In this document: piece by piece, positions 2-6,958 of the stretch
Numbering within the stretch: position 1 is the first letter of the stretch
Layout of the letters: every line of letters starts with the position of its first letter
Virus record (IMG/VR): IMGVR_UViG_3300049827_000053
Coordinates: 1-21,237 of that record
DNA: 21,237 bases
Reading direction: 5' to 3' (one strand)
Origin: a virus
Notes under the pieces: model-generated
What the model saw: only the letters and a program-made list of their open reading frames with translations
Databases searched by the model: none
Told to the model about the DNA's origin: nothing
Program-made: the position numbers and the translations under genes

Positions 2-964
2 TATGCAATTCAGGTTACAATGGCTAACTTTCCAAATACAAAACAATTGGGTTCAGTTGTTAATGTTGATGGTTATTCATTGCCGAAGATTGATATTCTA
101 ATTGGAGGATCACCTTGTCAATCATTTAGCTTTGCAGGTAAACGCAAAGGAATGTCTACAAAAGATGAACAAGAGATATTAACACTTGAGCATTATCTGG
201 AATTAAAGGCAGAAGGATTTGAGTTTGAAGGTCAATCGTATTTATTTTGGGAATACATGAGATTGCTAAATGAAGTAAAACCAAAATATTTTTTGCTTGA
301 GAATGTAATGATGGGAGAAAGATGGGAGAAAGTTTTAAGTAAAGCCATTGGAGTTAAAGCAATTATGATTAATTCAGCTTTAATTTCTGCTCAAAATCGA
401 CAAAGATTGTACTGGACTAATATAGGTTTACAACCACAAGGATTATTTGGTTATTTGGAATCTATTATTGAGCAACCTAAAGACAAAGGCATATTGTTGA
501 AAGATATTTTAGAAGAAAACGTTTCAAAAAAATATTTTATAAGTCAAAGAATGATAACTGGATTTATAAAACATACGGCAAAACACGAAGAAAAAGGAAC
601 TGGTTTTGGATGGAAACCAACCGAAGGTAATAAAAAAGCAAATTGTTTAAGAGCTAATGGAGCTTTAAATGCTACTGATAATTCAATAATTGTAGGTGAT
701 CAAGAAATTGTTGGTGGGGATTTTAGATATGATGAAGGATATAGATGGAGAGAAGGAGGAAAATCAGGCACCTTGTGTACCAATGCCGACAGTTTTGCAA
801 AGATAAATTCACAAATTAGAAGACTTACTCCAGTTGAATGTGAAAGATTACAAACAGTTAAAGACAACTACACAGCTCACGTTTCAGATTCGCAACGTTA
901 CAAGATGCTTGGGAACGGATGGACAGTAGATGTTATAGTTCATATTTTATCATACCTTAAATAA
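2..964 (+). CDS. DNA (cytosine-5) methyltransferase, 5'-truncated by the window edge
   Basis: Transfers a methyl group from SAM to C5 of cytosine in DNA, probably protecting phage DNA from host restriction. The frame is open to base 2, so the start and SAM-binding motif I (FxGxG) lie outside the window; the ATG at 20 is internal. Numbered from that ATG, the catalytic motif IV PCQSFS is at 32-37 (nucleophile C33), motif VI ENV at 94-96, motif VIII QNRQR at 125-129, a variable target-recognition stretch at about 150-260, motif IX RRLTPVECERLQ at 267-278 and a motif X-like LGNGW at 297-301. All motifs are in the canonical order, so the enzyme looks intact apart from the missing N-terminus. No cognate endonuclease is visible in the window. 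Identification as a Dcm-type enzyme is firm; the recognition sequence cannot be read from the protein. Confidence 0.93.
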   Translation, partial: YAIQVTMANFPNTKQLGSVVNVDGYSLPKIDILIGGSPCQSFSFAGKRKGMSTKDEQEILTLEHYLELKAEGFEFEGQSYLFWEYMRLLNEVKPKYFLLENVMMGERWEKVLSKAIGVKAIMINSALISAQNRQRLYWTNIGLQPQGLFGYLESIIEQPKDKGILLKDILEENVSKKYFISQRMITGFIKHTAKHEEKGTGFGWKPTEGNKKANCLRANGALNATDNSIIVGDQEIVGGDFRYDEGYRWREGGKSGTLCTNADSFAKINSQIRRLTPVECERLQTVKDNYTAHVSDSQRYKMLGNGWTVDVIVHILSYLK

Positions 965-2926: not shown

Positions 2927-3257
2927 AGAAGAAACTGTGATGATTTACTTGGGTTTATTAAACTCATTAATCGATCACATAGAAGGCGATTTTAGACAAT
3001 CGATATTCAACAAGCAATCACTAAAGAACAAATCAAACATGGTTTTGGATGAACTGCTAAAGATTGAGCAACAACTTTACAAGAACAATCCAGATACAAC
3101 CGTAAGCGATGACTACTTTAGTGCTGGAAAGAATATGTTAGAGTTTTTTAAGTTAGGAATTAAGATGACAAAATTAGAGGATGCGGAGGCGCAATCACTT
3201 AATACTGAATTAAATAGCTTATTAAATAAATACGAATTAGATTTGGAATTTAATTAA
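2913..3257 (+). CDS. Hypothetical helical acidic protein, last gene of the left operon
   Basis: A 114-residue soluble protein that is almost entirely helical by inspection: amphipathic stretches around VMIYLGLLNSLIDHIE, NMVLDELLKIEQQLYK and LNTELNSLLNKYELDLEF, with a polar break (NNPDTTVSDDYF) in the middle. The composition suggests a small helical bundle, possibly oligomeric. The family is not recognised. It is the last gene before the intergenic region containing the promoter-like sequence and the tRNA-like gene; I see no hairpin terminator between it and them. Confidence 0.68.
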   Translation: MKLNEEETVMIYLGLLNSLIDHIEGDFRQSIFNKQSLKNKSNMVLDELLKIEQQLYKNNPDTTVSDDYFSAGKNMLEFFKLGIKMTKLEDAEAQSLNTELNSLLNKYELDLEFN

Positions 3258-3275
3258 TTTTTATACATTTGTATA
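3242..3275 (+). promoter_or_regulatory. Bacteroidota-type promoter-like sequence upstream of the tRNA-like gene, inside an inverted repeat
   Basis: A -33-like TTTG (3242-3245) and a -7-like TACATTTG (3264-3271), separated by 18 nt, resemble the Bacteroidota consensus TTTG-N19-21-TAnnTTTG. Initiation would fall at or just after the 5' end of the tRNA-like gene (3275), giving almost no leader. The -7 box lies within a perfect 6-bp inverted repeat, TATACA-TT-TGTATA (3262-3275), which could be an operator or a chance feature of AT-rich sequence. The -33 element lies inside the end of the upstream gene. Confidence 0.45.
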
Positions 3276-3404
3276 GTCAGGTGGCGGAAGGTTAGGGGTG
3301 TCCCCTGACGATGGTAGACGCTAAACTCGGAAACCTAATTAGGTAGTGAACGTAAGAGTTAGATAACTGCGGTTATCGTATAGGTTCGAATCCTATTCTG
3401 ACTG
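3275..3404 (+). tRNA. Class II (Leu/Ser-like) tRNA-like gene with inserted D-loop hairpin and expanded anticodon loop
   Basis: The acceptor stem is AGTCAGG 3275-3281 with TCTGACT 3397-3403 (7 bp, one G-U), the discriminator is G3404 and CCA is not encoded. The D stem is GCG 3284-3286 with CGC 3319-3321; the D loop has Leu-like ends GAA and TGGTAGA. The variable arm is GATAAC 3362-3367 / GTTATC 3372-3377 (6 bp). The T arm is ATAGG-TTCGAAT-CCTAT (3380-3396). Two things are abnormal. The D loop contains a complete hairpin, GTTAGGGG-TGT-CCCCTGAC (3291-3309, 8 bp). The presumed anticodon stem AACTC 3324-3328 / GAGTT 3356-3360 closes a 27-nt loop instead of 7, containing the palindrome ACCTAATTAGGT (3333-3344). 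No anticodon can be assigned. A G discriminator suits Ser better than Leu, while the D-loop sequence suits Leu. It could be a processed tRNA, a tRNA-like structured RNA or a decaying gene. Confidence 0.65.
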
Positions 3405-3419
3405 CTAAACTTTGTAATT

Positions 3420-3623
3420 ATGAAAGAGCAAGTCAATCATCCTGAACATTATTCAGCCAATGGAATTGAAGCCATCGATGTTATAGATGCCTACGGATTG
3501 AATTTTAATCTTGGGAATGCAATTAAGTATATCTTAAGAGCAGATAAAAAAGGAAATAAGAAGGTTGATATGGAGAAAGCCGTTTGGTATTTGAACAGAG
3601 AAATAGATAAATTTCATGGATGA
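3420..3623 (+). CDS. DUF3310 (SaV-like) protein
   Basis: A 67-residue protein matching the phage DUF3310 family along its whole length: NHPEHYS near the N-terminus (residues 6-12), then IEAIDVIDA, FNLGNAIKYILRADKKG and a C-terminal KAVWYLNREI. The family is small and widespread in phages; it is sometimes labelled nucleotide kinase-like, but I know of no firm biochemical function. In larger phage proteins the same domain is fused to other parts; here it stands alone. It starts 16 nt after the tRNA-like gene and its end overlaps the next small gene by 8 nt. Confidence 0.85.
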   Translation: MKEQVNHPEHYSANGIEAIDVIDAYGLNFNLGNAIKYILRADKKGNKKVDMEKAVWYLNREIDKFHG

Positions 3624-5474: not shown

Positions 5475-5756
5475 ATGGACAAGCGAAAGAATAACGGAGG
5501 ACATAGTACCAAGCCAGTTAGAGAAACAGATATGCGTTTGGCTTCAAAAACTGACTTGCAAGCTATTCATGAGAAATTAGAGCCATTTACTGAAGAAGCA
5601 ATTAAAAAACACGCTGATGCAATTAAGTTAGGCGAGAAATGGGCTATTGAATTGTTCTATAAGTATCGTTATGGTATGCCTAAGCAAGTTATTGACCAAA
5701 ACAATACGCATACAATTAACGACTTTGACATAAAAGACATCGTAAAATTCGAGTGA
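5475..5756 (+). CDS. Putative terminase small subunit
   Basis: A 93-residue protein directly upstream of the large terminase; its stop overlaps that gene's GTG start (GTGA). Small terminases recognise phage DNA and load the packaging motor. The assignment rests mainly on position and size. The N-terminus is basic (MDKRKNNGGHSTKPVRETDMR), the middle helical (DLQAIHEKLEPFTEEAIKKH) and the C-terminus carries RYGMPKQVIDQNN, a Y/GxPxQ pattern seen at the ends of small-terminase-like proteins. A -7-like TTAATTTG (5460-5467) lies just before the ATG, one mismatch from consensus. Confidence 0.55.
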   Translation: MDKRKNNGGHSTKPVRETDMRLASKTDLQAIHEKLEPFTEEAIKKHADAIKLGEKWAIELFYKYRYGMPKQVIDQNNTHTINDFDIKDIVKFE

Positions 5757-6958
5757 TTAAGCTGAACAAAAAGTATGTTCCATTATTTGAAAGTGATTCA
5801 AGGTACTTTGTAATAACTGGAGGACGTGGATCAGGGAAATCGTATGCGTTAAACTCATTTCTTTTGCTTCTAACATACGAAGTTGGACACGTTATACTAT
5901 TTACTCGTTACACTTTAATCTCTGCCCATATCTCAATCATTCCGGAGTTTACCGATAAGATTGAAACTGCTGGACTTTCTGATGATTTCTACATCACTAA
6001 GGATGAAATCATAAACACGAGGACAAATTCCAAGATTATCTTTAAAGGTATTAAGACATCAAGTGGAACACAAACGGCAAACCTTAAATCATTGGCTGGT
6101 GTTACGACATTCGTACTTGATGAGGCTGAAGAATTAGTGGACGAAGAAGTATTTGACAAGATTGATTTATCGGTAAGACATAACACAAAGCAAAATAGGG
6201 TTATCCTTATTTTGAACCCAGTTACCAAAGAGCATTTTATTTATCGAAGATTCTTTGAGGCTAAAGGAGTTGAATCAGGAAGGTCATTGACAAAAGACAA
6301 TTCTACTTACATTCACACAACATACATCGACAATAAAAAGAATTTATCAGATTCCTTCATTCATCAAGTTGAGCATTTACAAGAAACCAATCCTAAGAAA
6401 TATCAGCACGCAATACTTGGGGGATGGCTGGATAAAGCTGAAGGAGTTGTCTTTACAAATTGGCAGTTCGGTACGTTTAACCCTAATGGCTTACAAACAT
6501 CATTCGGAATGGACTTTGGATTCTCAATTGATCCGGATGCGTTGACTGAAGTAGCAATTGATAAGACCAAGAAAATAATCTACATTAAGGAGGTCATTTA
6601 TGAACGTGGATTAAAGACGCACGTTTTGGCTCAGTTAATGAAGGATAAAGTTGGCGGTGGTTTAATCATTGCAGATTCAGCAGAGCCAAGACTAATAGAT
6701 GACTTACGCTATCAAGGTATAAACATTCAACCAGTAAAGAAGGGAACGATTGAATCTGGAATTGTAAGGATGCAAGATTACCAAATCATTCTTGATCCGC
6801 AATCGACCAATTTAGCAAAGGAGTTTAACAACTATTGTTATTTAAATAAGGCAAGTAAGCTATACATCGATGACTGGAATCACGGAATCGATTCGGCACG
6901 TTATAACATCATTTACCATTTAGATAATCCAAATCAAGGCAATTACCATATTTATTAA
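5753..6958 (+). CDS. terL: Terminase large subunit (ATPase-nuclease)
   Basis: DNA-packaging motor that cuts concatemeric DNA and pumps it into proheads. 401 residues, normal for the PBSX/Terminase_3 type. ATPase: Walker A GGRGSGKS at 23-30, Walker B FVLDEAEE at 120-127 (D123, E124), and coupling motif around VILILNPV. RNase H-fold nuclease: first Asp in GMDFGFSIDPDA (D254), second in IIADSAEP (D308), third in GIDSARYN (D380). The start is GTG at 5753 inside the upstream stop; the first residues lead straight into the expected N-terminal strand, so I accept it. All key residues are present. The assignment is firm. Confidence 0.95.
   Translation: MIKLNKKYVPLFESDSRYFVITGGRGSGKSYALNSFLLLLTYEVGHVILFTRYTLISAHISIIPEFTDKIETAGLSDDFYITKDEIINTRTNSKIIFKGIKTSSGTQTANLKSLAGVTTFVLDEAEELVDEEVFDKIDLSVRHNTKQNRVILILNPVTKEHFIYRRFFEAKGVESGRSLTKDNSTYIHTTYIDNKKNLSDSFIHQVEHLQETNPKKYQHAILGGWLDKAEGVVFTNWQFGTFNPNGLQTSFGMDFGFSIDPDALTEVAIDKTKKIIYIKEVIYERGLKTHVLAQLMKDKVGGGLIIADSAEPRLIDDLRYQGINIQPVKKGTIESGIVRMQDYQIILDPQSTNLAKEFNNYCYLNKASKLYIDDWNHGIDSARYNIIYHLDNPNQGNYHIY

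What the first reader, a model, noticed from the sequence alone, without database searches (positions are those of the whole stretch)
3275..3404. tRNA-like gene with a hairpin inserted in the D loop and a second insertion in the anticodon loop
Seen: acceptor, D, variable and T stems all pair and the T loop is canonical (TTCGAAT), but the gene is 130 nt where a class II tRNA is about 85-88. The excess is in two places: a perfect 8-bp hairpin with a 3-nt loop (3291-3309) in the D loop, and a 27-nt loop replacing the 7-nt anticodon loop, containing a 12-nt palindrome. Known group I tRNA introns are over 200 nt, and archaeal introns need a bulge-helix-bulge, which I do not see. Inference: either a tRNA with unusual processing, or a tRNA-shaped RNA used for something else, such as a decoy for anticodon nucleases, an aminoacyl-synthetase ligand or a regulatory RNA. 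A decaying tRNA would not be expected to retain paired stems.
Basis: partly seen in the sequence, partly recalled or inferred. Interest (0 to 1): 0.75.

Follow-up and report, generated by a model that had tools for sequence, protein, structure and literature searches.

The report
Phage tRNA-shaped RNAs with swappable heads
The odd tRNA-like gene is real and is one of a large, apparently undescribed family of phage RNAs that keep the top half of a tRNA as a constant chassis but carry interchangeable folded RNA modules where the D loop and the anticodon arm should be; what the modules bind is unknown.

Summary
In detail: 3275-3404 folds as a cloverleaf with a covarying hairpin in the D loop and a structured 27-nt loop in place of the anticodon loop. 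It is not a lone oddity. Most share one acceptor stem (AGTCAGG/CCTGACT) and T arm. They differ completely in two slots: the D-loop insert and everything between the D and T stems. D-loop inserts covary strongly (6 of 8 pairs changed on both sides). The window's anticodon-arm module recurs in nine other phage loci on the same chassis, with several kinds of D loop, and once free-standing between two ordinary tRNAs. At the window's own site, close relatives carry the same chassis with other modules, or nothing. One 208-kb phage has about 19 such genes beside a normal tRNA set. Of the 113, 102 cannot form a normal anticodon arm. I conclude that this is a non-decoding RNA family: a tRNA top half as processing and stability chassis for exchangeable structured heads. 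Decoy or ligand function against host factors is the best guess, untested. I found no prior description in the held library.

The parts
3242..3271 (+). Bacteroidetes-type promoter-like site: TTTG (3242-3245) and TACATTTG (3264-3271), putting a start near nucleotide 1 of the tRNA-like RNA
   Evidence: Read from the sequence; consensus TTTG-N(about 19)-TAnnTTTG is from general knowledge. Same sequence before the element in L002 and L078. Not enriched over the whole family (TAnnTTTG in 4 of 110 upstream regions vs 1.3 expected), so weak.
3275..3281 (+). Acceptor stem, 5' strand AGTCAGG, the family's commonest acceptor
   Evidence: Pairs with 3397-3403; 69 of 113 elements have AGTCAGG
3284..3321 (+). 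D arm: stem GCG/CGC, loop GAA-[insert]-TGGTAGA with A14 and G18-G19 kept; insert sits at the variable alpha position of the D loop
   Evidence: same frame in the family members
3291..3309 (+). Slot 1: D-loop hairpin GUUAGGGG-UGU-CCCCUGAC
   Evidence: Covariation in 14 distinct homologous inserts: 99.4% of cells paired, 6 of 8 pairs changed on both sides, 28 such cells, 0/500 shuffles reach that cell count
3325..3359 (+). Slot 2a: anticodon-arm module ACTC-GGAAA-CCTAATTAGG-TAGTGAACGTAA-GAGT
   Evidence: 25 of 35 positions invariant in 7 distinct copies; outer stem changes on both sides at 3 of 4 pairs; recurs in nine other phage loci on the chassis and free-standing in L213
3362..3377 (+). Slot 2b: class-II-like variable arm GATAAC-TGCG-GTTATC (UNCG-type tetraloop)
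   Evidence: Compensatory changes in L185 GGTATC/GATACC and L214 GATATC/GATATC
3380..3396 (+). T arm ATAGG-TTCGAAT-CCTAT
   Evidence: canonical T loop in the family (TTCGAAT 70, TTCGAGT 23 of 113)
3397..3405 (+). Acceptor 3' strand TCTGACT, discriminator G3404, encoded C74 (C3405)
   Evidence: C at position 74 in 110 of 113 elements, as in the normal phage tRNAs
3405..3419 (+). Right edge of the cassette: CTAAACTTTGTAATT, also present in the empty-site relatives just before the next gene
   Evidence: L005, L014, L015 join the upstream gene directly to CTAAACTTTGTAAT

Best explanation
The gene encodes a non-decoding, tRNA-shaped RNA of a modular phage family. SHOWN: a near-constant tRNA top half (acceptor stem, T arm, D-stem core with A14 and G18-G19, encoded C74) carries two slots. 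Slot 1 is in the D loop. Slot 2 replaces the anticodon arm and variable region. Both are filled with structured RNA modules that recur in different combinations in different phages, while the helices are kept by compensatory change. INFERRED from tRNA biochemistry: the constant half serves host tRNA maturation (RNase P where there is a leader, 3' trimming, CCA addition) and gives a stable, compact, nuclease-resistant RNA. LEAST CERTAIN, inferred from the turnover at one site: the modules are binding heads (aptamer-like decoys or ligands) for host, and probably defence-related, RNA-binding proteins or nucleases, refreshed by recombination through the shared chassis. The identity part is about 0.9 likely; the decoy function about 0.35.
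For: Family: 113 distinct elements on 82 contigs, 69 with acceptor AGTCAGG. Intact chassis: 84 of 87 pattern-found elements keep at least 6 of 7 acceptor pairs over 32 acceptor stems; strands taken from different stems reach 7 pairs in under 3%. Structured slots: mean fold z -1.69 for 63 slot-1 inserts and -1.07 for 104 slot-2 inserts. Covariation in slot 1 and slot 2. Exchange: one slot-2 module with three slot-1 states (L132, L166, L183), another with three (L174, L182, L194), and the window's with four. Same-site replacement: W, L002 and L078 have 91-95% identical upstream DNA but different slot 2; L005, L014, L015 are empty and L007 has a bare hairpin holding the counterpart of the L041b slot-1 module. 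Not decoding: 102 of 113 lack a 5-bp/7-nt anticodon arm. Same genome: G400 has about 19 and G399 about 15 copies of the shared acceptor/T-stem tail, next to normal tRNAs in G400.
Against: No expression, maturation or binding data. The decoy role rests only on modularity and turnover. No partner protein is common to the carriers (TROVE/Ro in 3 of 15 records). In the window alone slot 2 folds no better than shuffles (z -0.29). The pattern scans chose members resembling the window's D arm, so frequencies are biased and the total is unknown. Family membership used a filter of at least 6 acceptor pairs; one search is the less biased test.
Confidence: 0.58

Rival explanations
1. Regulatory or antisense RNAs: the tRNA ends are only stabilisers and the modules act by base pairing with host or phage RNAs.
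For: Conserved loops on covarying stems (UGU; ACUGAUAAA) would also suit loop-loop pairing.
Against: The window's slot-2 module is a conserved internal-loop motif (25 of 35 positions invariant), more like a protein or ligand site. Apart from one 17-nt sense match to 23S rRNA, inserts show no match to 23S on either strand beyond shuffles. Targets in mRNAs were not searched.
Confidence: 0.18
2. Selfish or neutral cassettes: recombination among phage tRNA islands scatters tRNA-like debris with no function.
For: Short identical chassis stretches are ideal for recombination; presence or absence at one site; L085, L086 and L149 carry an extra T-arm-like piece inside slot 2.
Against: Compensatory change in the acceptor, slot-1 hairpins and module stems needs selection on the RNA. 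Canonical T loops, and C74 in 110 of 113.
Confidence: 0.12
3. Aminoacylated non-decoding tRNAs: Leu-like RNAs (A73, GCGGAA..GGTAGACGC D arm) charged without an anticodon, used as synthetase or EF-Tu ligands or as amino-acid donors.
For: Discriminator A in most members (AC tail in 91 of 113) and Leu-like D-arm sequence. LeuRS does not read the anticodon (general knowledge).
Against: The variable arm, a feature of class II tRNAs, is replaced at will; the window itself has G73; the extreme slot diversity is not needed for such a role.
Confidence: 0.1
4. Working tRNA with two unusual introns removed by splicing.
For: tRNA ends and core are intact.
Against: No canonical anticodon arm in 102 of 113; inserts are shared modules, one also free-standing (L213); no splicing endonuclease in 15 carrier records; no bulge-helix-bulge seen; a carrier phage has ordinary tRNAs as well.
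Confidence: 0.03

Closest known systems
Canonical class II tRNA (tRNA-Leu)
   Same: 7-bp acceptor, U8, D arm with A14 and G18-G19, T arm, long variable arm in the window copy, C74 as in the phages' normal tRNAs
   Different: Folded hairpin in the D loop; no anticodon stem-loop; one acceptor stem shared by many different RNAs in one genome
tmRNA (RF00023)
   Same: tRNA top half used for something other than decoding; anticodon region replaced by other RNA
   Different: No G3-U70 alanine identity pair, no tag reading frame or pseudoknot set found, D stem intact, mostly 100-200 nt, many per genome; two carrier contigs also hold a separate tmRNA gene
Bacterial Y RNA (YrlA) with Ro60/TROVE
   Same: Non-coding RNA that mimics a tRNA
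   Different: Open acceptor ends; no TROVE partner in 12 of 15 carrier records
Engineered tRNA scaffolds and aptamer-tagged tRNAs (PMC3753655, PMC7590224)
   Same: Same principle: structured RNA placed in a tRNA frame
   Different: Laboratory designs; here natural, with two slots, and widespread in phage contigs
GOLLD and ROOL large RNAs (PMC12286853)
   Same: Large structured bacterial and phage-associated RNAs of unknown role
   Different: Far larger and multimeric, not built on a tRNA cloverleaf

Membership tests
tRNA | 7-bp acceptor stem and canonical T arm | tested here: met
tRNA | 5-bp anticodon stem with 7-nt loop and U33 | tested here: not met
   27-nt loop in the window; 102 of 113 family members fail; 24 of 31 short elements from the same contigs pass
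tRNA | Detected above standard thresholds | tested here: not met
   ARAGORN 0 genes; Rfam RF00005 25.6 bits, cut-off 29. Some relatives do pass Rfam
tRNA | Aminoacylated and used on the ribosome | not testable with these tools
   needs biochemistry
tmRNA | G3-U70 pair and tag-coding domain | tested here: not met
   pair 3 is U-A; ARAGORN and Rfam report no tmRNA in the window
Intron-containing tRNA | Canonical anticodon arm once the insert is removed; splicing enzyme | tested here: not met
   no PF01974 in 15 carrier records. Not every possible pair of splice points was tried
Bacterial Y RNA | Ro60/TROVE partner encoded in the same genome | tested here: inconclusive
   TROVE in 3 of 15 large records, none in the other 12
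Known Rfam family | Match at the curated cut-off | tested here: not met
Decoy RNA against host factors | Binds and titrates a defined host protein | not testable with these tools
   inference only

The most novel reading that the evidence does not exclude
A natural, combinatorial RNA display system: phages, probably of Bacteroidota, keep one constant tRNA top half and swap folded RNA binding heads in two slots, up to about 19 different ones per genome, renewing them by recombination in an arms race with host defences.
Probability: 0.33. Interest if true: 0.95.

Novelty: categorically new. Interest (0 to 1): 0.86.

Why it matters
If right, this is a new class of phage non-coding RNA hidden by annotation, because tRNA finders miss these genes or call them undetermined or wrong isotypes. 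It would show that nature uses the tRNA as a general RNA chassis, as engineers do, and would give a ready library of compact evolved RNA heads whose targets may reveal unknown host defences. It also warns that tRNA counts in large phages include genes that cannot decode.

Tried and rejected
Rfam scan of the window (nothing above cut-off). BLAST of the window element, an L096 array, the D arm and the slot-2 module against INPHARED, and of the module against plasmids: no family member found by similarity; chassis hits were ordinary tRNAs, except that Tenacibaculum phage pT24 carries two tRNA-Undet genes on another chassis whose anticodon arm is a hairpin with a 3-nt loop. Bacterial chromosomes: the genome-contig scan gave only unrelated hits, 0 of 395 Bacteroidota genomes hold the D-loop-insert pattern, and 0 of 148 hold the exact chassis. 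rRNA mimicry as a general rule: only L135 matches (17/17 nt of a 23S loop), and shuffles reach similar E-values. Family-wide own promoter: not supported. TROVE/Ro as universal partner: rejected. Splicing: disfavoured. Hammerhead-like reading of the slot-2 module (CTGATGAG in some copies): rejected by eye, not conserved. Literature searches found no description; the library lacks most subscription papers and all bioRxiv preprints.

Full report
What is in the window. The window is a 21,237-base IMG/VR virus record with a terminase (5753-6955) whose best relatives among sequenced phages are Nonlabens phages P12024S and L (61% identity), so a flavobacterial phage is likely. The element lies in a 162-base intergenic stretch between a small ORF ending at 3257 and a DUF3310 gene starting at 3420. 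Its minimum-energy fold is the full cloverleaf with the extra hairpins. ARAGORN does not see it and Rfam tRNA scores 25.6 bits, under the 29-bit cut-off.

The same site in close relatives. Terminase relatives gave 75 loci. L005, L014 and L015 have the same flanking genes with the element cleanly absent; L002 has a tRNA-like RNA with a normal D loop and a 105-nt slot 2. L078 has the same promoter-like sequence and chassis with a different slot 2. W, L002 and L078 are 91-95% identical over 300 nt upstream. L007 has, behind the same upstream sequence, only a two-part hairpin containing GGTTGTATCAGGGGTTCCCAGTC, the counterpart of the D-loop module in the second tRNA-like gene of L041.

The family. 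Some of these hits are protein-coding or GC-rich chance matches without a T arm; they were dropped. A structural filter gave 113 distinct non-canonical elements on 82 contigs. In 69 the acceptor is AGTCAGG. C is encoded at position 74 in 110, as in the phages' ordinary tRNAs. A less biased check took all D-arm hits followed by a T arm: 76 of 87 have all seven acceptor pairs and 8 more have six, over 32 acceptor stems. Pairing strands from different elements reaches seven pairs in under 3% of cases.

Slot 1. There are 61 distinct D-loop inserts, 33 of them with a simple hairpin of 6 bp or more. In 14 distinct members of the window's type, 99.4% of cells pair, 6 of 8 pairs change on both sides in 28 cells, and no shuffle of 500 reaches that cell count or covariation score; sliding the partner strand destroys the pairing. 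A second type keeps the loop ACUGAUAAA while its stem covaries. Inserts fold better than dinucleotide shuffles (mean z -1.69, 63 inserts).

Slot 2. The region between the D and T stems varies from about 20 to over 100 nt in most members. 102 of 113 elements cannot form a 5-bp, 7-nt, U33 anticodon arm; the three clearest exceptions are Leu(UAA)-like genes of a separate lineage. The window's anticodon-arm module occurs in L185 and L213-L221. Across seven distinct copies 25 of 35 positions are invariant and the outer stem changes on both sides at three of four pairs. It sits on the chassis with no D-loop insert (L214, L216-L220), with the ACUGAUAAA hairpin (L185), with another insert (L215, L221) or with the window's hairpin. 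In L213 it stands alone between two ordinary tRNAs. The variable arm GATAAC-TGCG-GTTATC is kept by compensatory changes. Other modules also move between carriers.

Within one genome. In the 208-kb record G400 the shared acceptor/T-stem tail occurs 19 times, in the 251-kb G399 15 times, with up to one mismatch. In G400 many of these sit beside a conventional set with normal anticodons and individual acceptor stems. ARAGORN labels a few of the AGTCAGG genes in G400 and G398 as Tyr, Pro, Ser or Leu.

Where it is not. The D-loop-insert pattern is absent from 395 Bacteroidota genomes and the exact chassis from 148. BLAST found no copy in 50,697 phage records. The cultured phage pT24 has two tRNA-Undet genes on a different chassis whose anticodon arm is a hairpin with a 3-nt loop, which suggests the wider design exists in culture. 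These searches are limited to the patterns and queries used.

How it probably works. The constant part is what RNase P, 3'-end enzymes, CCA addition and T-arm modification recognise (general knowledge of tRNA biology), so the RNA should be matured and stable. Slot 1 lies at the D-loop position where natural tRNAs vary in length, and slot 2 replaces the anticodon half, so both heads would project from an intact elbow core (inference). Modules with conserved loops or internal loops on covarying stems look like binding sites. Replacement at one site in near-identical phages suggests changing selection, most simply from host defences. I therefore favour decoys or ligands for host RNA-binding factors, at about 0.35; antisense action, charging by a synthetase, and neutral recombination remain open.

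Limits. No expression data. Membership came from patterns resembling the window, so abundance and host range are biased and uncounted. Host assignment of most contigs was not established. Literature coverage excludes preprints and most subscription journals, so the novelty claim is provisional. 'Categorically new' refers to the modular two-slot design and multi-copy repertoire; the tRNA fold itself is of course known.

Noticed in passing
upstream of elements in L041, L077, L081, L084, L096, L109, L112, L162, L173, L200: A short hairpin with loop GAAAGA and a covarying 4-bp stem, preceded by TGAC, lies within 40 nt upstream of 10 of 113 elements; 52 such hairpins in 4.3 Mb against 7.5 expected. 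Looks like part of another unnamed RNA.
   Followed up: partly
G402:C1:122228, G403:C1:98029, G404:C1:50735: Three large phages with tRNA-like genes encode TROVE (Ro60-like) proteins in frames of about 550 aa.
   Followed up: partly
L084:133-547, L096:6629-7114: Phage-borne tmRNA genes on contigs with tRNA-like genes.
   Followed up: no
L135:8071-8119: D-loop insert reproduces 17 of 17 nt of a 23S rRNA hairpin loop (AGTAGTGGCGAGCGAAC) on an unrelated stem; L169 has a diverged version.
   Followed up: partly
L085, L086, L149: Slot 2 contains an extra T-arm-like piece, as if part of another tRNA gene had been inserted.
   Followed up: no
L137, reverse strand, first 750 nt of the reverse complement: Two copies of a separate putative RNA (TGTGTTGTTCCCTTGAGAA...ACAACACAGAGGTTCTCAACCTC) beside the tRNA-like array.
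   Followed up: no
L111, L171, L172: Otherwise normal tRNA-Leu(UAA)-like genes with encoded CCA and a 20-nt D-loop insert, a different lineage.
   Followed up: no
window 20-964: C-5 cytosine DNA methyltransferase gene at the window's left edge.
   Followed up: no
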